A stretch of DNA of 64,000 bases from Frankia casuarinae. Its GTDB lineage: Bacteria > Actinomycetota > Actinomycetes > Frankiales > Frankiaceae. A model generated the notes under the pieces. It was given only the letters and a program-made list of their open reading frames with translations, was not told the DNA's origin and made no database searches. The position numbers were made by a program, and so were the translations under genes. The stretch lies in assembly GCF_000013345.1 (NCBI RefSeq), contig NC_007777.1, forward strand, positions 558,001 to 622,000, written 5' to 3'. Shown in pieces: positions 20,497-32,144 of the stretch; position 1 is the stretch's first letter; each line of letters starts with the position of its first letter.

Positions 20497-21061
20497 GGCG
20501 CCTTTCCGCCGGCCGGTCGTGCGGGTGCCGGGACTAGCGGTAGCCGACACCCGCATCCGTCAGCTTTCTGTTGACGTCGGAGGGCGTGCCCCCGGTCGCC
20601 AGCCGGGTACGGGCTGGCCTCCCTCAGGCGTTCAGCCAGTTACGCCGGTCTCGTGGCGCGGGACGTCGGTCCGCCGGCGTCGGGCACCGCCGTGGGGCCG
20701 TTTCCGCCCGTGTCCGCCGGGCCGGTCTGCGGCGGCCCGTCCCCGGTCTGCGCTGGCCCGTCGTGCGAGTCGGCGGAGGCGGGACGGATCGACCACGGCA
20801 CCTCACAGAACAGGCGGGGGAATTCGGCAAATAAACGCTAACCGCACTATCCGATTCTGCCAAGCGCGTGCATTCTGCCGACCACTCCCGCTCGTGACCA
20901 TGATTAGATAGGATGCCAGTAATGGCATGACTCTTGGCCTACTCTTGGCCTACCCGGGTACGTGCCAGATGCTCGCTGAGCTGCACCGATGCGCCGCCTC
21001 AGACGTACCCAATTAGCGGGTACGCCGTTGGGGGTCCGTTGGGGTGGTCGGGTACGCGTAT
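20497..21061. other. Intergenic region left of the transposon
   Basis: No supported gene in about 560 bases. It has a TCTTGGCCTAC direct repeat (about 20931-20952), a GTACCC/GGGTAC hairpin (21005-21023), and lower GC near 20820-20940. It may contain debris of earlier insertions. Confidence 0.5.
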
Positions 21062-21066
21062 GACGG

Positions 21067-21152
21067 TCTAGGGATCTGTAGGGATCGCGGACAGATGGCC
21101 ACTCACCGTGATGGTTGGCCAGTAGATGGCCGCTGGCCGTGGTAGTTGGCCA
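21067..21152. repeat. Left transposon end with transposase-site repeats
   Basis: Two tandem 10-base termini TCTAGGGATC and TGTAGGGATC (21067-21086) are followed by (A/T)TGGCCA sites at about 21095, 21115 and 21146. The same motif recurs inverted at the right end (28795, 28830, 28861), spaced 31-35 bases. Confidence 0.75.
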
Positions 21153-21306
21153 ATCTGCGGGAGACGTCGGGTGATGCCGGTCCGGAGCGATTCTGCCGCC
21201 GTCGCGGGTGCGGAAGGTCGGCGCGAGATCGTCGGCTCTCCGGCTGAATGGTTCGCGGGGTGCCAGCCTCGGATAATCGTCATTTCGATCTGTAGGAACT
21301 CGCTGA

Positions 21307-22176
21307 TTGCCGTGTTCTCTGGGGCCGCGGGTGTGGTCCGAGGTGTGCCCTGCGATGCATTGCGGCGGTTCCGGCCTCCTGGCGCCCTACCTTTCGGACA
21401 TCGACGGTGAACTGGTCGCGCAGAAGCGGGCTTCGGGTTCGGCCTGCGCGGACGGGGAGGACCTGCCTGAGCCGGTCGTGTTGTTGCGCACGGCGGAGGG
21501 TGAGGTCGAACGCCCGATACGGAACGTTACGGCAGCGCAGGTGATGGCGGCTGTGCCGTGGCGGACGGTCCGAAGCGTGCGAGGGCAGCCGCATTTTCCG
21601 GGTTGGTACTGGTCTGCGACGACGGGCGGTCATGTCGTCTACGAGAGCCGGTTGGAGTTGGCGCGGCTGCCGGTCGCGGACTTCGACACGCAGGTGGTCG
21701 GGATCGCGGCGCAACCGTTCCTGCTGCGGGCGACGGTCGGTGGCCGGGTCCGCCGGCACGTGCCGGACCTCCTGCTGGTGCATGCGGATGGGGCGGCGCG
21801 GCTGGTGAACGTGAAGCCGGTGTCTCGGCTGGAGGACCCGGTGGTCGCCGAGGCGCTGCGGTGGCCGGGCGTCGTGGCGCGGTCGCACGGCTGGGCGTAT
21901 GAGATCTGGAGCGGCACCGAGGCGGTCTATCTCGCGAACCTGCGGTTTCTGGCCGGCTATCGCCGGCCGGGTCTGCTGCCCGACGGGTTGACGGATGCCG
22001 TCGTCGCGGCGTTCCGGCCCGGTGACACGATCGGTTCGCTTGTCGGTCGCGCGACGCGGGAAAGCCCGGCGGGGCAGGTCAAGGCCGCAGCGCTGACGCT
22101 GCTGTGGCAGCGAAGGCTGTCGACGGACCTGCACCGTCGGCTGGGCGACGACAGCACGCTGGAGACGGCGCTGTGA
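21307..22176 (+). CDS. tnsA: TnsA-like transposase endonuclease subunit
   Basis: In Tn7-type elements TnsA nicks the 5' ends so that, with TnsB, the element is excised cleanly. The PD-(D/E)xK nuclease core is visible: E113 and E117 in YESRLE, D154 in VPDLL, and K170 in LVNVKP. The C-terminal part is helical and should contact TnsB or TnsC. The earliest start is TTG 21307; GTG 21331 or ATG 21355 (with GAGG upstream) may be the real start, as the first residues show no similarity. The stop overlaps the tnsB start. The gene looks intact. Confidence 0.85.
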   Translation: MPCSLGPRVWSEVCPAMHCGGSGLLAPYLSDIDGELVAQKRASGSACADGEDLPEPVVLLRTAEGEVERPIRNVTAAQVMAAVPWRTVRSVRGQPHFPGWYWSATTGGHVVYESRLELARLPVADFDTQVVGIAAQPFLLRATVGGRVRRHVPDLLLVHADGAARLVNVKPVSRLEDPVVAEALRWPGVVARSHGWAYEIWSGTEAVYLANLRFLAGYRRPGLLPDGLTDAVVAAFRPGDTIGSLVGRATRESPAGQVKAAALTLLWQRRLSTDLHRRLGDDSTLETAL

Positions 22177-24106
22177 TGGCGCAGGCGCGGGTGGACGTGG
22201 CGGTCGGTAGCCGGCTGGCGCACGACGGCCGGTGGTGGACGGTGACCGAGCTGACGGCGGGCTCGGTGCTGCTCACCGACGTCGGTGGCGGGGTCCGGCA
22301 GGTCGGGCTGGCTCATCTGCTGGCGCATCCCAGCACCCGGCTGCTCACCGACGTCCCGGTCGACGCGGTGGCGGGCGTGGGCGCGGATCTGGCGGGCTTG
22401 AACGCGGCTGGCCGTGAGGCGCTGGCCGATCGGGTCGGGCACGTGCAGGAGGTCCGCACGGGGTTCCGGCGGGGCTGGTCGACGAGCGGTGGCGGCGGCG
22501 ACAGACAGCGCTGAGCGTGGTGGATGGCCGCTGGGTGGATACGGCGCGGGGCGTGCTCGCCGAGTTCAGCCACGCGAGCACGCCGACTCAGGACTTGGTT
22601 CTCGCGGCGATCGAGGCTCGGCTTGAGCAGGAGCACGGCCCGGGGGTGGTGCGCCTGCCGGGTCGGACCCGGGCGCGGGCCCTGCTGCGGGAGCTGAGCC
22701 GCGGCACCAGCGCGTTCGGTGGAGCCAAGGGCCGGCGGGAGATCGCGGGCCGCCCGGTGGCGCCTTACGGGAAGCTGCGGGCGCACCGGCCGGGTGAGTA
22801 CCTGCTGGTGGACACGACCAGGTTGGACGTGTTCGCGATGGAGCGGGTGACGCTGCGCTGGGTGCAGGCGGAGCTGACGGTCGCGATGGACCGCTACGAC
22901 CGGTGCATCACCGGGCTGCGGCTGACCCCGGTGTCGACGAAGGCGGTCGACGCCGCGGCGGTGCTGTTCGAGTCGATCCGTCCGTTGCCGGAGCCGGCGG
23001 CGGGCTGGGTGGATGTCCGCCCGCCCTATCACGGTGTTCCTGGGCGGGTGGTGGTCGATGTCGAGCGGCTCGTCGACGCCGGCGGCGTCCCGCTGTTGCC
23101 GTCGGTGGCGGCGGAGACCCTGGTGGTCGATCATGGCCGGATCTATCTGTCGGAGCATCTGCTGTCGGTCTGCCAGCGGCTGGGGATCTCGGTGCAGCCG
23201 GCGCGGGTCGCCCAGGCCACCGACAAGGCAGCGGTCGAACGCTTTTTCCGCACGCTGCGCGAGCAGCTACTCGTCGCGCTTCCCGGCTACAAGGGCCCGG
23301 ACGTCCACCACCGGGGCGCCGATGTCGAGGAGCAGGCGTTCTACTTCCTCGACGAGCTCGAAGAACTCATCCGCCAGTGGGTCGCGGACTGCTACCACCG
23401 TCAGCCCCATGGCGGCCTCGTGGTCCCGGAGGTGCCGGGGCTGGCGGTGTCGCCGTTGGAGATGTTCGCCCACGGGGTGGCGCGGGCCGGTCATCTCCAG
23501 GTGCCCGCGCGGGCGGACCTGGTCTTCGACTTCCTGGCGGTCGAATGGCGCACGATCCAGCACTACGGGGTGGAGATCGGCGGGCTGCGCTACGACGGGC
23601 CCGCCCTGTCGCCCTACCGCAACCGGACCAGCCCGCACACTGGCGTCCACGCGGGCAAGTGGCCGATCCGCGTCGACGCCGATGACGTCAGCCGGGTCTA
23701 CTTCCAGGACCCGGCCGACCAACGCTGGCATGTGCTGCGCTGGGAGCACGCCGACGCCCTGGGCGGCCCGTTCAGCGCGGACGCGCTGGCCTACGCCCGC
23801 CAGCTCGCCACCGCGACCGACCGGTTCCCCGACACCCGCCGAGCACTGGCCCGGCTGTTGGAACGCTGGGACGCGGGCCTGGCCGGCAACCGGGCCGAGC
23901 GGCGCATGGCGGTGCGTCTGTCCGAACGGCGGCTGCGTCTCGTCGGCGACACGGCCGTCCCGGACGAACCCGCCCCGGCGGTCGCCTCGCCCGACCAGGA
24001 CCGTTCGGCCGAGGAGACGGCGGGCGATGACGACCGCGACGACGAGCTTGGCGCCCCGTTCCCTGGCGAAGACGACTTCTACGCCGACGCGATGGAGATC
24101 GTGTGA
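22173..24106 (+). pseudogene. tnsB: TnsB/TniA-type DDE transposase, internally deleted
   Basis: The 3' part (22517-24106, 529 codons) holds the complete catalytic core: D99 in LLVDTTR, D205 in VVDHGRIY and E241 in DKAAVERFFRTL, followed by a Mu-like beta-barrel and a tail ending in an acidic segment. The 5' part (22173-22514) encodes the normal N-terminus (VGSRLAHDGRWWTV ... RVGHVQEVRTGF) and then hits a stop. Read in the frame of the 3' part, the DNA just upstream encodes HGVPAGLVDERWRRR, the end of the usual helix-turn-helix. So roughly 45 codons of DNA-binding domain are missing and the frame is shifted. The protein is probably non-functional as a full transposase. Confidence 0.85.
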
Positions 24107-25236
24107 CCGCACCGCCGGACGGCGGCGAACGCGCCTACAGCCTGTCGACGAAACAGGGATGGACGACGTTCGTGACCGCCCCGGACCGGCCACGCCCCGA
24201 AGCGTTGGACCGCGCCGGCCTGGCGGCGCTGTCGGCGACGGCGCGGGCGGACTACGACGAGCAGCGCACGGTCTGGCACGCCAACCTCGGCCCGATCCGC
24301 ACCCCGCAGATGCGGGCTGTCCACGACGACCTCGATGACATCGTCGAGGCCAACCGGCAGGACGGCGACAAGGTCAAAGGCGCCGCGGTCATCGACGCGT
24401 TCCCCGGGCTGGGGAAGTCCACGGTCGCGCAGACGTTCGCCCGCGGCTTCCACCAGCGCCAGCTGGCCCGCTACGGGCCGACGACCACCGGCGGCCATGA
24501 GCGGGTCCCGGTCGCGCACGTCTGCCTGACCTCGTCGACGACGAAACGCACGTTCAACACGATGCTCTGCCGGTTCTTCCACCTGCCCGGCTCGGAGCGG
24601 GGCAACGCCGAGCACCTCGGCCACAAGGCCGCCGATGCGGTCCTGGCCTGCGACACCCGGCTGATCGTGATCGATGACGTCCACTTCCTCGACCCGCGGC
24701 GCGCCGACGGCCGCGATGTGGCGAACCATTTCAAATATTTGGCGAACACCTTCCCGGTCACGTTCCTCTACGTCGGTGTCGGGATCATCCGCCGCGGCCT
24801 GCTCGCCGAGGGACTCGGCCCGTCCGAGGAGGAGCTCGCGCAGAACGGCCGCCGGTGGACGACGCTGTCCGTCGACCCGTTCGAGATCGAGACCGAGCCG
24901 GGCCGGCGCACCTGGCGGCGGCTGCTCCTGGCGATCGAGAAGAACCTGATCCTCGCCGAGGGCCATCCGGGGATGGTCGCCGACGAGCTGTCGGACTACC
25001 TGTTCGCCCGCAGCACCGGCCACTTCGCCTCGCTGATGACCCTGATCGTCCGCGGCTGCCGCCGCGCGGTCCGCACCGGCCAGGAACGGCTCACTCCCGC
25101 CTTGCTCGACCAGGTCCGCAACGACGCCGCCGAAGCCGCCCGCCAGGAACTGCACGCCGCCTTCACCCACCGCCGGCTGACCAGCCGACCCGCCAGCACC
25201 CCACGCGCCGAGCCGGCGCTGCCGGCGGCGGGATAA
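24103..25236 (+). CDS. tnsC: TnsC/TniB-like AAA+ ATPase
   Basis: The transposition regulator that links target selection to the transposase. Of its 377 residues, the Walker A motif is G102-LGKST, Walker B is LIVIDD (D191-D192), and a sensor-like segment follows in FLYVGVG. The GTG start overlaps the tnsB stop by 4 bases, showing they were co-translated. The gene has no visible lesion. Close relatives occur in actinobacterial Tn7-like elements and also resemble TniB of Tn5053. Confidence 0.88.
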   Translation: MTAPPDGGERAYSLSTKQGWTTFVTAPDRPRPEALDRAGLAALSATARADYDEQRTVWHANLGPIRTPQMRAVHDDLDDIVEANRQDGDKVKGAAVIDAFPGLGKSTVAQTFARGFHQRQLARYGPTTTGGHERVPVAHVCLTSSTTKRTFNTMLCRFFHLPGSERGNAEHLGHKAADAVLACDTRLIVIDDVHFLDPRRADGRDVANHFKYLANTFPVTFLYVGVGIIRRGLLAEGLGPSEEELAQNGRRWTTLSVDPFEIETEPGRRTWRRLLLAIEKNLILAEGHPGMVADELSDYLFARSTGHFASLMTLIVRGCRRAVRTGQERLTPALLDQVRNDAAEAARQELHAAFTHRRLTSRPASTPRAEPALPAAG

Positions 25237-25240
25237 GCCG

Positions 25241-26800
25241 GTGGTCGACAGCATCCCGATCCGGCTGGCCCCGCTGCCCGGTGAGGACCTCGACAGCTAC
25301 CTGCACGCCTACGCCCGCCTGCTGCACGCCGAGGTCTCCGACATCCTCACCCTCGCGGGCCTGGCAGGTCAGCCGAGCACCGAGAAGCTCGGCCACCGGC
25401 CCTGGACCTACCGGCTCGACCCCGTCGAACGCGCCGCGCTCGCCACCGTCACTGGCCTTCGGCCACAGACTCTCACCGCGATGACCCTCGCCCGCTACGA
25501 CGACACCGGCCTACTGAGCGGTATCCGGCCGACCGGACGGCCCCGGCCGCCCCGCTGGTGGAACCAGCTCAAAGGATCACGGTTCTGCCCCCGGTGCCTC
25601 GCCGGCAACGGCGGACGGTGGATGCTGGCCTGGCGGCTGCCCTGGACCTTCGCCTGCACCCGTCATCATCTTCTGCTCGTCGACACCTGCCTCGCCTGCG
25701 GCCGGGCTCACCGCCCCGCCCTTGACCAGCCGCCCCGCGGCCCCGGGACGGTGCGACACGACCGGCCTGCCGCTCCCGTCACACCCGCGCGGACGCCAGC
25801 CGCCCGCCTGCACGGCCCCACCCGCCGACACCGACGCGGTCGCGCTGCGTCCCGATGGTCCGATCGTCACCGCGCAACGTCACGTAGACAATCTGCTCGC
25901 CGAGCTCGGCCGCAGCCATCCTGGCACCGTCGCCCGGCCGGCGGGTGTCGCGCAGCGCCTCGACGACCTGCACGCCGTCGCCTTCGACACCCACGGCGCC
26001 CCCATCGATTACGCCCGCCGCCGGCGATGGCGACGCCTGCGCCAGCCTGACTTCGACGAGACCGCCTGGCGCGATCGCTTATCTGCACGACCGCGCCGCA
26101 CACATCCTGCGCCGCGGCAGGATCGACGAACCTGTCACCTGGGAACCGCCCTTCGACTGGATCACCGGCATCACCTGGCCCGGCCTCGACCCCACCCGCG
26201 TGCACCGCCGGGAACTCTGGGCCCACCGACCCCGCCCCCATCGAACCGCCCCACACTGTCCAGCCCCCGACCATCACGGAGCCCACCCAGCTGTCCGGGC
26301 GCGCGATCCTCGCCGCGGTCGATCCCGCCTGGCTACGCGAGCAATACGAAGTCAAGCGACGACACTTCGCCGACATCGCCGCCGAGCTCGGCATCCATGG
26401 CACCGACGTCAGCGCCCGAGCACGCGCCCTCGGCATCCCCACCCGCCGCGGCACCGCCGCCCACACCCACCCCCTGGCCCCGCACGGAGGACCCGACGCG
26501 TTCACCCCGCTGACCTGGACCGTCCTCGACGGCCGAGGCGCCGAACAGCGTGTCCGCAGACTGCTCGCCACCCCCGGCCACGCCCACCTCCGCGACGCCG
26601 CCCGCGCCCTCGGCATCCGCACCGACGCCCTCAGACGGCAGATCCACCACCTTGAACACACCGTCGGCGCCGCACTGCTGCACACCGACGATCAAGAACA
26701 CCTCATGCTCACCCCGCACGGCGAACACCTCGCCCACACCCTCCTGCCCATCCTTGATCTCCTCGACCGCACTCGGAATCCGGGGAGGACACCCTCCTGA
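25241..26800 (+). pseudogene. tniQ: TniQ-family target selector with three frameshifts
   Basis: The N-terminal TniQ domain is clear: IRLAPLPGEDLDSYLHAY, then a zinc ribbon with CPRC (116-119), C139 and CLAC (150-153). The coding frame then changes near 25740 (to a frame reading RCDTTGLPLPSH ... NLLAELGRSHPGTVA), near 26074 (AYLHDRAAHILRRGRI ... GITWPGLDPTRVHRREL) and near 26225, returning to the first frame for a C-terminal part with two helix-turn-helix-like segments (ADIAAELGIHGTDVSARA and ALGIRTDALRRQIHHLE). The stop is 26798-26800. Restored length would be about 520 residues. Three separate +1-type shifts indicate decay or, less likely, sequencing error. Confidence 0.75.
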
Positions 26801-26983
26801 CCCACTCCGTCATGACTGTTCCTGGGGCGCGACGCCACGGGCATTCGTGATGAACCGGGTTAACGTCCGACGTCGTCGAGGAGGAACTCGCCGCCCCGGC
26901 CGAGGGCCGGTTCCGCATCGAACCGCTGATGTTCCACCTCGCCGCATCCCGTCCTCAGACAGGCCACGACGGTCGCAGCAGTG
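26801..26983. other. Spacer between tniQ and cargo
   Basis: Short region with an open frame reading TSDVVEEELAAPAEGRFRIEP near 26870-26930, which may be a remnant of another gene. No complete gene is supported. Confidence 0.35.
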
Positions 26984-27508
26984 TCAGCCGTCGAACACTG
27001 ACCAGCAGATGTCGTTGCGCAGTCGCTGATCGTCCAGAACCAGTTCGCGAATCGCGTCCGGGAGCTGTTCTCGCTGCCAACGGCACTCAAGCCGTGCGGC
27101 GGCCTCAGCTTCGCCCGCGGGCGCCGCCGCCCGCGCGGCCTTGATCGCGTAGGCCGCGGCACCGAGTTCGTGTGCGGCGACATGGGCGACCACCCCGGCC
27201 TGACCGGCGGCGAACGCCGCGTGACGAGCCGCTCCGCTCATCACCCTGGCGGCGGCCATGGCATGGCCGCCTGCCGAGCGGGACTGGGACATCGTGATCT
27301 CGCCTCGCGACCAGGCTCGAATCTGCTCGATCGCATGGCGGGGCCGGGGGTCCGACGGCTGCACCGACTCGAAGAGGTACAGAACGTGTTCTGCGCAGGC
27401 TGCCGCCCACACGGCCAGGAGCTGATGATCGGAGTCCGTGAGCGTGCCCCCACGGCGAACCGTGATGAACCGGGGGTCCCGCTCCTTGGGGAGGATCACG
27501 GGTTCCAC
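26984..27508 (-). CDS. Imm-5-like putative immunity protein
   Basis: The product (174 residues from GTG 27508) starts ILPKERDPRFITVRRGGTLTDSD and continues with HQLLAVWAAACAEHVLYLFE, an Ala-rich helical body (MAAARVMSGAARHAAFAAGQAG) and RWQREQLPDAIREL at the C-terminus. This is the layout of the Imm-5-like family of predicted immunity proteins of polymorphic toxin systems. No partner toxin is next to it. It is cargo of the Tn7-like element, transcribed toward tniQ. GTG 27499 is an alternative start. The family assignment is from pattern recognition; its activity is not known. Confidence 0.65.
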   Translation of the reverse strand: MEPVILPKERDPRFITVRRGGTLTDSDHQLLAVWAAACAEHVLYLFESVQPSDPRPRHAIEQIRAWSRGEITMSQSRSAGGHAMAAARVMSGAARHAAFAAGQAGVVAHVAAHELGAAAYAIKAARAAAPAGEAEAAARLECRWQREQLPDAIRELVLDDQRLRNDICWSVFDG

Positions 27509-27597
27509 CGTACGGCCACGCAGACATCGCAGGTCTGCCCGCAGACAGCGACGAACCGGCGGGCCCGATGGGACGATGGGTTCGAAGGAGGGGCAGC

Positions 27598-27921
27598 GTG
27601 GACGACCCGCATGTACATGTCGAGTGGGCCGTGCCGAACGCCAGCGCCGATCTGCGCGCGGTGACGGCATCAGTGTTCGGGCTCGTCGGCGACGCACCTC
27701 ACGCGGTGCGGACGGGATGCGGCACGCAGGTCTCGTATGCCTCGACCTCCACCCATCCCGAACGTGTCACCTGCCTGCCGTGCCGGGACTACGCGCGAGA
27801 CCGCTACCTGCGCTACGCGACCAGGATGGAGGAGTCAGCGATCCTGCCAGGCGGCGGTGATGTTCAGGACGTCCTCGCCGCGGCACGCAGACTGCGCGAC
27901 CTCGCCGATCGGTTCACCTGA
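27598..27921 (+). CDS. Small CxxC protein of unknown function
   Basis: 107 residues from GTG 27598, which has a near-perfect site GAAGGAGG seven bases upstream. The middle contains C-G-T-Q-V-S-Y-A-S-T-S-T followed by TCLPCRDYARDRY, so a Cys plus a CxxC pair could bind zinc. A C-terminal helix reads VQDVLAAARRLRDLAD. It is divergent from the Imm-5-like gene and so may share its control region. The function is unknown. The strong ribosome binding site and intact frame argue that it is a living gene amid decayed transposition genes. Confidence 0.65.
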   Translation: MDDPHVHVEWAVPNASADLRAVTASVFGLVGDAPHAVRTGCGTQVSYASTSTHPERVTCLPCRDYARDRYLRYATRMEESAILPGGGDVQDVLAAARRLRDLADRFT

Positions 27922-28113
27922 CACCAGGTTCTGCATCACGACGAACAGCGCCTCCGCCGCCTCCTGGATCGCCAAAAATGGCCAAGTAGACGCTGCCCGT
28001 CGGCCCCTCCTCTGGCCGCGCCGAGCGACGGCGAGGGGGCCGGTTGCCTGAGGATGGGCTGTTTCGGATGTGAGGTGGTCTCGGTGCCGGTACGGGCGTA
28101 ATCCGGTGGAGGC
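27922..28113. other. Spacer holding an internal transposon-end copy
   Basis: TGGCCAAGTAGA at 27979-27990 is identical to bases 28861-28872 of the right end, in the same orientation. It suggests a former element boundary here, with the methyltransferase gene lying between two end copies. Confidence 0.6.
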
Positions 28114-28767
28114 CTACGTCTGCTGGGGGCGGCGGGCCAGTAGCTGGGCCTGTCGGCCTCGTTCTTCGTCCGTCGGTGCTCGTACCAGCTGGGCGACCTC
28201 GACCAGTCCTGCCTGCCGTGCCAGCTCGGTGAGGTGGTCGGGCGGCCAGCGGTACGCGCCGGTGACCCGGTGGTCATAGGCGTGCACCCCGGCCGCGGGC
28301 TCGTCGGTGGCCAGAAAGCCGAGGAGCAGGTGGCCGCCGGGTGCAAGGAGGCGGTAGATCTCGGCGAGGATGGCGGGGATGTCGGCGGGCGGGGTGTGGA
28401 TGAGCGAGTAGCGGCACAGGGCGCCGCTGAGGATGCCGTCCGGCAGGTCCAGCGCGGTCATCGTGCCCACCTCGAAACGCAGCTGTGGATGTGAGCGTCG
28501 AGCGATAGCGATCATCTTCGGTGACAGGTCCACGCCGAACACGTCCAGCCCCAAGCGGTGCAGGTGGGCCGTCGCATAGCCGGGCCCGCAGCCGAGGTCG
28601 GCGACCGGGCCGGGCAGGGGGCGCGTGAGGTCGGCGAACGCGGACAGCAGCGCACGCTCCAGCGGCTGGCGGTCGAGCACGTCGGCGAATAGCTCGGCAT
28701 ACACCTCGGCCACGCCGTCATACGCCGCCGCGACGGTCGTCAGATAGTTCGGGGCAGACTCGGCCAT
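28114..28767 (-). CDS. Class I SAM-dependent methyltransferase
   Basis: 217 residues with the SAM-binding motif I VADLGCGPGY near residue 55, the acidic ribose-binding strand VFGVDLSPKMIAIAR, the post-I segment DLPDGILSG, and LAPGGHLLLGF. It belongs to the broad Methyltransf_11/25 group; the target cannot be read from sequence. It is the last cargo gene before the right end, on the minus strand, and is flanked by two copies of TGGCCAAGTAGA, so it may have been acquired separately from the other cargo. Confidence 0.82.
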   Translation of the reverse strand: MAESAPNYLTTVAAAYDGVAEVYAELFADVLDRQPLERALLSAFADLTRPLPGPVADLGCGPGYATAHLHRLGLDVFGVDLSPKMIAIARRSHPQLRFEVGTMTALDLPDGILSGALCRYSLIHTPPADIPAILAEIYRLLAPGGHLLLGFLATDEPAAGVHAYDHRVTGAYRWPPDHLTELARQAGLVEVAQLVRAPTDEERGRQAQLLARRPQQT

Positions 28768-28794
28768 GGCCGATCATCCTAGGCGTGCCCCGGC

Positions 28795-28885
28795 TGGCCA
28801 ACTACGGTGGCCAGCCGGGGCGCTGGCGCTGGCCAACAACCGCGACCTGCCAGCTCGGAGTGGCCAAGTAGATCCGTTTCCTACA
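28795..28885. repeat. Right transposon end (inner)
   Basis: TGGCCAA sites at 28795, 28830 and 28861, then CCTACA ending at 28885. Its complement TGTAGG matches the left inner end at 21077, and both continue to a TGGCCACTC about 20 bases inward. Confidence 0.75.
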
Positions 28886-29063
28886 ACGGTCTAGGGATCG
28901 CAGATAGATGCCCGATCCGTTGAAGCCGGGCCAGGTCGTCGCTGCTGTAGCGGCGGGTCCCGCCGTCGGTGCGGGCCGGCTCCAGCAGCCCGCGCCGCTC
29001 GTACAGACGCAGGCTCTGCGGGTCCATCCCGACCAGATCGGCGGCCACCGAGATCCCGTACAC
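28881..29063 (-). pseudogene. MerR/HspR-type regulator, N-terminal fragment
   Basis: 60 codons. The first 48 residues are a good MerR-type winged helix: YGISVAADLVGMDPQSLRLYERRGLLEPA ending at DDLARLQRI. The frame then runs into the transposon terminus (complement of TCTAGGGATC) and stops, so the rest of the regulator is missing. The wording of the helix is closest to HspR-like members. It lies wholly inside the 218-bp element 28890-29107. A truncated DNA-binding peptide is the most that could be made. Confidence 0.75.
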
Positions 29064-29107
29064 CTCTCACCAGGCCCCGGGATGGCCAACGTCGCGCGAT
29101 CCCTACA
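28890..29107. mobile_element. 218-bp non-autonomous element carrying a merR fragment
   Basis: Bounded by TCTAGGGATCGC on the left and the complement of TGTAGGGATCGCG on the right. (A)ACGG lies before it and GACGG after it. It holds one TGGCCAA site (29083) and the 5' end of a merR-type gene. It looks like a miniature or deletion derivative of the same transposon family, and perhaps the original occupant of the GACGG site into which the larger element inserted. Confidence 0.55.
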
Positions 29108-29579
29108 GACGGCGGGCTGTGGGGATCGGAACGGCCGCATTGTGCCGATCGCCGGTTCGGGGGCGCGGAGGGGTACGGACGTCCGAGCGAGTCTGGAAAC
29201 GATCAGAAGCCTCGACTGGTGTGACGTCCGCCACTTTCACGGAGCGTGAAAACCTGCGTCGACTGGGTCGCTTGGGGGAGGGGTGGTGGAAGTTCCATCG
29301 GCACCGTCCCGGCCCGCGGCCTGAACCAACACCGCCGGGGCCTCGTCGGCTGCGTGCTGGCCCAGCCGCTGCACTCGTCCTCGCCCGGGTCGGACAGGGC
29401 GCTGGCGGACCGGGGCCGAGCGATGCTCCGACTGAGGGCTCGGATCGGCTGTGCCAGCCCGGCCACCGTGCCGACGAACCGCCACGAAATCGTCCGCACG
29501 AAGCCCAACGCCCAACATGAGGAACGGGCAAACACCGCCTCCACCAGCCAATCTATGCCGCCCTGATAAACTCTGAGCC
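29108..29579. other. Intergenic region before the split argS
   Basis: About 470 bases without a supported gene. It contains the right GACGG duplication and a perfect dyad TTTCACG-GAG-CGTGAAA (29235-29251). Overlapping frames on both strands show no family features. Confidence 0.5.
29235..29251. promoter_or_regulatory. Dyad upstream of argS-like gene
   Basis: TTTCACG and CGTGAAA separated by GAG. It is a candidate operator for the argS-like gene 330 bases downstream, or a relic of the transposon flank. The regulator is unknown. Confidence 0.35.
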
Positions 29580-30216
29580 GTGAATATGCTTGCCCAGGTG
29601 ACCTCCACGCGTAGGCGTGATATCGAAGATCTCCGCGACCGGGTTCGCGGGTCTCGCCCCGCGGCCTTTCCTTCGTCACGCGACTATCCGCTGGCAAGGC
29701 TAAGTGCGATCGTCACGCAAGCATTGCAGGAGAAGTTTGCGCGTTCCGATCTCACGGCAGAGATCGAGTTGATCTCCCGAGAGAAGTTCGGCGCCGACGT
29801 GACGGTTAAGATGCCGATGCTCCTTAAAGAGGCGGGCGCGAAAGAGTTCGTTAGGACCTACATTCCGCGGGCCATCGAGGCCCTGCAGGTCGAGGAGCTC
29901 AAGAAGGTAATTTCCGAGGCCACCGCCAAAGGCATCTACATCAATCTCACGCTGTCCGATAACTGGCTGGCGCAGGCCGTCCAGGGGATCAACAGCCTTG
30001 GCGATAGATTCGGCGAGAACGACAGTGCCGCCAGGCGGACCCTCATCATCGAATACTCGTCGCCGAACGTCGCGAAGAAGCTTCACGCCGGACACGTCCG
30101 ATCAACTATCATTGGGCATGTGCTCGGCAATCTACACCAAGCATGCGGTGCGCTCGTATACCGGTTGAACCACATCAATGACTTCGGCGGATTCGGTTTC
30201 ATGCTGGAGGGGTTTC

Positions 30217-30224
30217 GCCGTTTC
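30217..30224. repeat. IS66 target duplication, left copy
   Basis: GCCGTTTC, repeated exactly at 32145-32152. Eight bases is the standard duplication length for the IS66 family. Confidence 0.95.
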
Positions 30225-32144
30225 GTACGTATTCGGAAATCCCGTTGGGGCATGATCGTGGGCGGCGTGACCGTGGGGCACTCCGCTGGGGTCTCGGGGG
30301 TCGGGGTCAGCCGGGAGGCTGTTGCCAGGTGGTGAGGTCCTCGGGGCTGGCGGCCCAGGGCAGGAACCGGTCGAGGTCGGCGCCGGTCGGCGGCTTGCCG
30401 CCGGCCCGGCCGCAGGCGTCGAGGTAGTTCTCCAGGTAGGTCAGCAGGTTCAGGTTGTGCATCGCGGCGGTCGCGGTGACCGTGAAGATCGTGGCGGCGT
30501 GGCGGGCGGTGTCCTCGGTGCGGGAGCCGCCGGCGTTGCGCCGGGTCACGACCGGGCCCCTGATCGCCCTTTCCGCCGGGTTGTTGTCCATGCCGATCAT
30601 GGGGTAGTCGCGGTGGGCGACCAGCCCGTCCCATTCCCGGTCCAGGGTCGCGAGCGCCTTGCGCGCGGGTTCCTGCAGGCCGGGCGAGGCCGTCTGCTCG
30701 CGGCGAACCGTGTCGATCACGGTGATCGCGGTGTCCCAGCCGGCGTACGCGGCGGCGAGCCGCTTCTCGGTGGCCGGCGACGGGGCCGCGGCGGCGGTGT
30801 GCCAGGCGGCGGCGAGCTCGCCGTGCGCGGTGTAGAGCGCGCGGATCCGCTCGACCCACTGGCGGGCCCAGATCCCGAGCTGGGCGGGGTTCGCGTCGCC
30901 GGCCCGCACGAAGTACCGCCGCGCGTGCGCCCAGCAGTACAGGTTGACCAGGCCATCGGCGCGGCGGCCGGCGGAGACGTACACGGTGTAGAAGTCCGAC
31001 GACAGCACGAGGCGGCGCGGTCCGCCGTCGGCGTCGTCGGTCAGCTGGCCGCTGTCCGGGTCGAGGCCGACGTGTTCGGCGAGCACCGCCGTCGAGCGGG
31101 TCGCGTCCATCACGAAACAGACGCTGTCCGGCCCCAGGAACACCCACAGCCACCAGCGGGCCGGCCCGCCGCCGCCGGTCGGGGTGAACACCCGCCAGGT
31201 CGTCTCGTCGGCGTGCAGGTGCCACGACCCCCGCGACCGCCCGACGATCTGCTCGGCGAGTGGGGCGAGCAGGCCCGCGACCTGGGCGCACGCCCCGGTC
31301 AGCGTCGCCGGCGAGAGCTGGGCGCCGTGCCGGGCCAACCCGGTGACCAGCGAGTTCTGCGAACGGCCCGCGACATAGCGCTCCACGATCAGCATCGCGA
31401 GGAACCGGTGCGTGAACAGGCCCTTCCCGATCGCCTTCGACGGTCCCGGCGCGGTCACCGTCAACGACCCGCCACAGCGGCAGCCCCGCCGATACCGGCG
31501 CCGCCTCGACACCCGAACCCGCACCGTCACCAGCCAGTCGAGCTGCTCGACGACATGCTCGCCCCACGGCGTGAACGGCTGCCCACACGACAGGCAGCCA
31601 TAGCCCCCGCCCTCGAAGTCGCAGTCGACCTCGTCGCGGGACAGATGGTCGTAGCTCCGCCGGCCCGAGCGCGCGCCCGGCCCCCGCCGCCGGCCTGCCG
31701 ACCCGGCGGCCTCGCCCCGCGCCCCGTCGCCACAACCGTCCCCGCCATCCGGCGAACCCACGGCCGGCGACCCGCCGCACTCCCGTTCCGACGACCGGCC
31801 GAACAGCATCCGCCGCAACGTCGCCAGCTCCGCCTGCAACGCCTCGAGCTGGAGACGCAGCTCCACCACCTCGGCCTCACGCGTCGCCTCCCGCGCGACC
31901 AGCCCGGCGATGTCCGTCAACAGCTCCGCGACCCGGGCCCGCAGCCAGGCGTTCTCCGCCAGCAGCGCCGCGCCCTCGGCAACCTCACCGCTCGCGGCAG
32001 CGCCCGCCCCCGACTCGACAACCGTCACGCACCGCAGCAAACCACCCCGACCGGCAGAACATCACCCACCACGACCATCAGGCCACACCCAGCCCCGAAG
32101 GCCGTCACCCCAAAAGATCAACAACGGGACTTCCGAATACGTAC
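30225..32144. mobile_element. IS66-family insertion sequence (ISBst12-like)
   Basis: A 1,920-base element. The inverted ends read GTACGTATTCGGAAxTCCCG with one mismatch (30225 onward and the complement ending at 32144). It carries only a tnpC-type transposase gene and no tnpA/tnpB, as in the ISBst12 subgroup. Target duplication GCCGTTTC on both sides shows a simple insertion. The interrupted gene is otherwise intact, so the event is recent. Confidence 0.95.
30307..32040 (-). CDS. tnpC: IS66 family transposase (TnpC)
   Basis: 577 residues, an intact reading frame. The N-terminal coiled coil with leucine-zipper-like spacing (LLAENAWLRARVAEL ... LRLQLEALQAELATLRRMLFG) is followed by a zinc-finger region with CLSCG and CRCGG. 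The central DDE domain includes LHADETTWRV (first Asp), SSDFYTVY (second Asp) and, near the end, NNPAERAIR (catalytic Glu). The gene is inserted antiparallel to argS and ends 82 bases from the left inverted repeat. Nothing suggests inactivation, so the element may still move. Confidence 0.95.
   Translation of the reverse strand: MLRCVTVVESGAGAAASGEVAEGAALLAENAWLRARVAELLTDIAGLVAREATREAEVVELRLQLEALQAELATLRRMLFGRSSERECGGSPAVGSPDGGDGCGDGARGEAAGSAGRRRGPGARSGRRSYDHLSRDEVDCDFEGGGYGCLSCGQPFTPWGEHVVEQLDWLVTVRVRVSRRRRYRRGCRCGGSLTVTAPGPSKAIGKGLFTHRFLAMLIVERYVAGRSQNSLVTGLARHGAQLSPATLTGACAQVAGLLAPLAEQIVGRSRGSWHLHADETTWRVFTPTGGGGPARWWLWVFLGPDSVCFVMDATRSTAVLAEHVGLDPDSGQLTDDADGGPRRLVLSSDFYTVYVSAGRRADGLVNLYCWAHARRYFVRAGDANPAQLGIWARQWVERIRALYTAHGELAAAWHTAAAAPSPATEKRLAAAYAGWDTAITVIDTVRREQTASPGLQEPARKALATLDREWDGLVAHRDYPMIGMDNNPAERAIRGPVVTRRNAGGSRTEDTARHAATIFTVTATAAMHNLNLLTYLENYLDACGRAGGKPPTGADLDRFLPWAASPEDLTTWQQPPG

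What the first reader, a model, noticed from the sequence alone, without database searches (positions are those of the whole stretch)
28880..29112. Nested transposon ends and a captured merR fragment
Beyond the inner right end (28885) comes ACGG, a second left-type terminus TCTAGGGATC (28890), the 5' part of a MerR/HspR-type gene cut exactly at that terminus, and an outer right terminus (29107) followed by GACGG. The 14 bases ACGGTCTAGGGATC also abut the left inner end at 21063-21076. The simplest history: a 218-bp miniature element first inserted at GACGG, then the large element inserted 10 bases inside its left end. The 14-base repeat is longer than the 5 bases expected, so a recombination event is an alternative.
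Basis: partly seen in the sequence, partly recalled or inferred. Interest (0 to 1): 0.6.

Follow-up and report, generated by a model that had tools for sequence, protein, structure and literature searches.

The report
Small transposon inside a Tn7-like array
A very small transposon carrying a scrap of a regulator gene was invaded at its own end by a larger, now broken, Tn7-like transposon; both belong to a family of mostly small elements that, in related bacteria, often sit only a few bases apart.

Summary
Element B (28890-29107, 218 bp) has terminal repeats and a 5-bp duplication, GACGG. Element A (21077-28885) is a decayed TnsA/TnsB/TnsC/TniQ (Tn7-like) transposon. B was found once; intact merR, 92-97% identical, is in 4 of 12 other genomes of the genus and nowhere else in this one.

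New context: Frankiaceae hold a family of mini-elements with ends TGTAGGGATCG..TGGCCA. Of 35 such ends, 11 have another outward-facing terminus 4-7 bp away (control: 82 of 40,000 positions). Several carry one or two genes and are too short to hold the transposition genes. A terminus flush on a 12-bp piece of a sister terminus is seen in G008, and a 4-bp spacing like A-B in G027. The 14-bp repeat does not fit the family's 5-bp duplication; I favour a crossover between two ordinary A insertions (at ACGGT and GGATC), but an aberrant duplication or a later change is not excluded.

The parts
21062..21066 (.). GACGG, left copy of the outer 5-bp target duplication
   Evidence: sequence; pairs exactly with 29108-29112
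21063..21076 (+). left copy of the 14-bp repeat ACGGTCTAGGGATC, flush with A
21077..28885 (+). element A, decayed Tn7-like transposon, ends TGTAGG..CCTACA
21307..22176 (+). tnsA-like gene
   Evidence: Pfam TnsA_N E 8.4e-5, below its curated cut-off; 46% identity to an annotated TnsA-like protein
22104..24106 (+). tnsB/tniA, broken: N and C parts in different frames (ORFs 22104-22514 and 22517-24106)
24103..25236 (+). tnsC/tniB
   Evidence: Pfam AAA_22 and TniB
25241..26655 (+). tniQ remains: N-terminal domain intact, later pieces in other frames, no match for the middle
26984..27697 (-). cargo: Imm5-like gene
28114..28767 (-). cargo: class I methyltransferase
28886..28899 (+). right copy of the 14-bp repeat (ACGG plus B's left terminus)
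28890..29107 (.). element B, 218-bp mini-element
28905..29064 (-). captured internal merR fragment, about codons 12-64 of 112
29083..29107 (-). B right terminus, TGTAGG-N13-TGGCCA on the minus strand
29108..29112 (.). GACGG, right copy of the outer duplication

Best explanation
B is a non-autonomous mini-element of a Tn7-like (TnsABC-TniQ) family. Its ends enclose an internal piece of an hsp20-linked merR gene, joined on the left at a shared TAGATG. B was at GACGG first. A, an autonomous relative that has since decayed, inserted at B's left end, as family members often do at sister ends. The 14-bp flanking repeat most simply comes from a crossover inside A between two ordinary 5-bp insertions, one at ACGGT (4 bp outside B plus its first base) and one at GGATC (bases 6-10 of B); that crossover gives GACGGTCTAGGGATC-A-ACGGTCTAGGGATCGC exactly. 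Shown: the sequences, A's gene content, the habit in relatives, the 5-bp duplications. Inferred: order of events, that B moved as an element, the microhomology step, the crossover. I put about 0.8 on B first and A second, and less on the crossover.
For: Outer duplication GACGG. Ends of A (both) and B (right) match TGTAGG-N13-TGGCCA exactly, 4 exact sites in the genome. Delimited relatives duplicate 5 bp. Ends lie 4-7 bp apart in 11 of 35 unselected cases against 82 of 40,000 control positions; a separate search gave 8 places with spacers 4,5,5,5,5,5,6,7 and none at 22 other lengths. Parallels for each junction: G008 and G027. Intact merR elsewhere.
Against: B was found once. B's left end departs from the consensus (TCT start; TGCCCG instead of TGGCCA). 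No empty site or intermediate allele was found. The crossover needs two A insertions 9 bp apart. In G008 the far end of the neighbouring element was not found in 19.7 kb. Neighbour spacers of 4, 6 and 7 show that the 5-bp rule is not strict at sister ends, or that spacers change later. L086 has TGTAGG ends on both sides of the genes without matching 5-mers.
Confidence: 0.45

Rival explanations
1. A inserted once into B's left end with an aberrant 14-bp target duplication.
For: One event explains the flush 14-bp repeat. Neighbour spacers in relatives vary from 4 to 7.
Against: 5-bp duplications in the delimited relatives and mini-elements; strand-transfer distance is fixed by the transpososome in Tn7 (recalled).
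Confidence: 0.25
2. A inserted beside B with a 5-bp duplication ACGGT, and the extra CTAGGGATC at its left came later by slippage or conversion from B's left end.
For: The 4-bp spacing has a parallel in G027; the two ends share TAGGGATCGC.
Against: Needs a second, exact 9-bp event; a flush terminus piece is also seen in G008, where it fits an ordinary insertion.
Confidence: 0.2
3. B never moved as a 218-bp unit: a larger family element at GACGG lost its middle and the break was filled with merR DNA on the spot.
For: Single copy; left joint at a 6-bp microhomology; each end keeps only about one candidate TnsB site. This is compatible with every account of the 14-bp repeat.
Against: Elements of nearly the same size (214 and 223 bp) with 5-bp duplications are established elsewhere.
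Confidence: 0.35
4. The whole A-B pair moved here as one unit with duplication GACGG.
For: Two arrays have an outer duplication around a different inner spacer, L146 (GTCAC, CAGGC) and L156 (GTCCC, GGTCT).
Against: The inner spacer repeats ACGG of the outer GACGG, a coincidence if the pair came from elsewhere; the doubled TCTAGGGATC stays unexplained.
Confidence: 0.05

Closest known systems
Tn7-like transposons of the actinobacterial TnsB clade (Benler et al. 2021, PMC8649781, passages seen)
   Same: TnsA, TnsB, TnsC and TniQ genes, TGT..ACA ends, inner repeats, 5-bp duplication in relatives; that paper mentions elements inserted within or next to others.
   Different: A is broken, its flanks show 14 bp, and it sits among transposase-less mini-elements. 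Whether A falls in that clade was not tested by a tree.
TIMEs, Tn3-derived miniature elements (PMC4133298, passages seen)
   Same: About 260-bp elements with a transposon's ends and no transposase; pairs can mobilise DNA between them.
   Different: Ends and transposition genes are Tn3-type, not Tn7-like.
Mobile insertion cassettes (search listing only)
   Same: As I recall them: short ends around a passenger gene, no transposase.
   Different: Ends here belong to a Tn7-like family.
Pack-TYPE elements of plants (search listing only)
   Same: A piece of a host gene between terminal repeats.
   Different: Bacterial, single copy, Tn7-like ends.

Membership tests
Tn7-like transposon (element A) | TnsA, TnsB, TnsC and TniQ genes together | tested here: met
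   TnsA below the Pfam cut-off but 46% identical to an annotated TnsA-like protein; tnsB and tniQ broken
Tn7-like transposon (element A) | TGT..ACA ends with inner repeats | tested here: met
Tn7-like transposon (element A) | 5-bp target duplication | tested here: not met
   A's flanks are a 14-bp repeat; met in relatives
MITE (element B) | short, terminal repeats, no transposase | tested here: met
   218 bp
MITE (element B) | target duplication | tested here: met
   GACGG
MITE (element B) | several copies | tested here: not met
   One copy in this genome, none in 12 other genomes of the genus
MITE (the 214-bp sister elements) | several copies with 5-bp duplications | tested here: met
   G000, G008 and G018
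Gene-capturing (Pack-TYPE-like) element (B) | gene fragment between termini, parent gene elsewhere | tested here: met
   Parent gene in 4 of 12 other genomes at a place that shares no other match with the window
Gene-capturing (Pack-TYPE-like) element (B) | mobility after capture | not testable with these tools
   Only one copy known

The most novel reading that the evidence does not exclude
A Tn7-like family in Frankiaceae uses the ends of resident sister elements as its landing site, stacks single-gene mini-transposons a few bases apart, and such stacks can then move as units: a transposon-based way of collecting gene cassettes.
Probability: 0.25. Interest if true: 0.8.

Novelty: new variant of a known kind. 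Interest (0 to 1): 0.5.

Why it matters
The locus opens onto a family that I did not find described in the held papers (searches; listings, and passages of four papers): Tn7-like mini-elements with one or two passenger genes and no room for transposition genes, which accumulate at each other's ends. If the ends act as targets, target choice in this family becomes testable, and so does how small a Tn7-like end can be, since B keeps about one candidate site per end.

Tried and rejected
Copies of B elsewhere: none (on plasmids 45 records match, no match covers 80% of B, and the annotated ones seen are mostly merR genes; 25 of 45 rows not listed). Idea that B marks the original merR locus: rejected, since 14-17 kb around merR in four congeners has no other match to the window at E 1e-8. 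Idea that A-type elements normally have a doubled left terminus: not in the four delimited plasmid relatives; in the Frankiaceae loci scanned only this window and G008 show one, plus one weak chance-like hit, L055. Empty site: joined flanks found no relative with both sides together; the left flank (20700-21043) is a dispersed repeat whose similarity ends about 23 bp before the insertion. Conserved attachment site: G000 and G008 share one locus and G018 has a similar flank, but the window's left flank is only weakly alike (score 33, highest of 20 shuffles 28) and the other flanks look unlike; left open. L141 looked to me like a captured transporter fragment, but Pfam and a plasmid search gave nothing; dropped. 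In one search, a search for outer ends that repeat the spacer found both for L148, only unconvincing candidates for L155 and L156, and none for L150, L167, L168, L169 and L170. Of 8 plasmid loci, L066, L068, L072 and L073 could not be delimited; of the genome relatives, only the G018 element could. The raw counts (43 hits, reversed control 40; 8 places, reversed control 22) are not above control; the signal is the shared extra bases, the duplications and the spacing. From, 8 of 43 hits without the extra consensus were dropped before the 35-end count.

Full report
The sequence. Every coordinate in the finding is right. From left to right: GACGG (21062-21066), TCTAGGGATC (21067-21076), element A (21077-28885), ACGG, element B (28890-29107), GACGG (29108-29112). 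The 14 bases ACGGTCTAGGGATC lie flush on both sides of A. The window is G000:C1:558001-622000 of a single 5,433,628-bp contig; from memory that size is Frankia casuarinae CcI3, and no call names the organism.

Element A. It carries genes for TnsA-like, TnsB/TniA, TnsC/TniB and TniQ proteins. A TnsC search found 168 plasmid records; eight loci were viewed and show this gene set, TniQ annotated as such in six of them (L067-L072 have TniQ or a neighbouring TniQ family protein, L073 too, L066 not). tnsB is split between two frames, and for tniQ only the start and two later pieces match, in different frames, so A is probably not autonomous today. In 4 of the 8 plasmid loci the ends could be set: TGTAGG ends with 5-bp duplications (L067 GCCGC, L069 GCTCG, L070 TCTAT, L071 CAAGA). 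In genome G018 a relative has GCTGA on the left flank in one contig and on the right flank in another; that pairing is inferred. In L086 TGTAGG ends flank the genes without matching 5-mers. A's own flanks do not fit 5 bp.

Element B. Its right end matches TGTAGG-N13-TGGCCA exactly, as do both ends of A and the right end of a second element in this genome; these are the only four exact sites in 5.43 Mb. The second element (L046 7447-8951, duplication CGGGC) is a 214-bp mini-element interrupted by a 1288-bp IS3-type insertion with a GGG duplication. B's left end, TCTAGGGATCGCAGATAGATG, departs from the consensus but resembles ends of a sister type with TGAGCA repeats (L150, L155, L156). A TCTAGGG start was seen once more, in G032.

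The merR piece. 28905-29064 matches open merR genes at 92-97% in G001, G004, G007 and G011, that is 4 of the 12 other genomes of the genus. In G001 the gene has 112 codons and lies beside hsp20, and a Rhodococcus plasmid has the same pair. The piece covers about codons 12-64. The intact genes read GAGTAGATGCCC or the like and B reads CAGATAGATGCCC, so the left joint lies in a shared TAGATG (in G007 one base differs); joining at microhomology is inferred. No other copy is left in this genome at E 0.001.

The family. Exact TGTAGG-N13-TGGCCA was sought in 35 Frankiaceae genomes: 43 hits in 21 genomes, 35 of them with the extra consensus [GA]A[TA]CG. The raw count equals the reversed-pattern control (40); the shared extra bases and the duplications show the family. 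Elements with exact 5-bp duplications: 214 bp (L143 GCGAT, L148 ACCCA), 223 bp (L148 ACCCA), 801 bp (L141), 920 bp (L139), 947 bp (L149), 2392 bp (L153). Passenger reading frames matched Pfam in 8 of 10 tested: AHSA1 (L139), glyoxalase (L146, L149), SnoaL (L146), metallo-beta-lactamase fold, hydrolase and TetR (L156), NAD-binding (L152); L141 and L153 gave none. L152 has no exact duplication, and L146 and L156 are arrays. L153's right end matches A's left at 172 of 197 positions.

The habit. Of the 35 ends, 11 have another outward-facing terminus (at most 2 mismatches in 10) 4-7 bp away; 82 of 40,000 random positions in the same loci do; without this genome it is 10 of 31. Separately, CCCTACA-N{0,25}-TGTAGGG gave 8 places in 35 genomes with spacers 4, 5, 5, 5, 5, 5, 6 and 7 and none at the other 22 lengths; the reversed pattern gave 22 places, so the signal is the spacing, not the count. 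Four of those 8 places (G018, G027, G032, G033) are also among the 11. L148 is a clean array, ACCCA-214-ACCCA-223-ACCCA. L146 and L156 have a shared outer duplication around a different inner spacer, as if the pair had moved together. Of the ten neighbours outside this genome I read six as TGAGCA-like, one TGGCGA and three TGGCCA; no base rate was measured. Both self-end targeting and reuse of one attachment site predict equal spacers, as in L148; flanks at most solo sites look unrelated, which favours the first, but G000, G008 and G018 share a similar flank, which favours the second.

The A-B junctions. The left junction of A (TCTAGGGATC|TGTAGGG) has one parallel: in G008 a 12-base TGTAGGGATCGC lies flush on the end of a 214-bp element whose 5-bp duplication is the last five of those bases; beyond the element's other end follow that duplication and another terminus, not the rest of the first one. 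The right junction (ACA|ACGG|TCTAGGG) has a parallel in G027 (GCCT). Each junction alone is an ordinary 5-bp insertion into or beside a sister terminus: GGATC on the left, ACGGT on the right. Joining them by a crossover in A gives the observed structure without an unusual duplication. A single 14-bp duplication, or a 5-bp insertion plus a later 9-bp change, is not excluded.

Against this reading: B is single-copy; its left end is degenerate; no empty or intermediate allele was found; the G008 parallel could be followed on one side only; and spacers other than 5 occur.

Papers. Bickhart et al. 2009 on Frankia insertion sequences (PMC2770080) does not contain the words Tn7, TnsA, MITE or nested (word search of the main text). 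Benler et al. 2021 (PMC8649781) says in a passage seen that the clade dominated by actinobacterial transposons had no experimentally characterised member; I did not place A on a tree. Passages of PMC10293859 and PMC4133298 were seen. Nine searches of the held library listed no description of these mini-elements; it lacks most subscription journals.

Noticed in passing
29118-29129: TGTGGGGATCGG, 10 bp beyond B's right end, one base from the family terminus and preceded by CGGGC as in the second element; no inner TGGCCA follows. Possibly the relic of a third element.
   Followed up: partly
20700-21043: The left flank is a dispersed repeat: a copy at 2752632-2752980 of this genome (76%) and copies in G008, G010, G026 and G027.
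   Followed up: partly
L046 7447-8951; L143 1891-2104: Two genomes carry a 214-bp mini-element at the same chromosomal place with different 5-bp duplications (CGGGC, GCGAT), so the site may have been hit twice.
   Followed up: partly
29580-30335: Start of an arginyl-tRNA synthetase gene that runs into an IS66-like transposase region on the other strand (IS66 is my reading).
   Followed up: no
L072 11944-13068: A TnsC-type ATPase gene bears the predicted-resistance label BLMT in the plasmid table, probably a mislabel.
   Followed up: no
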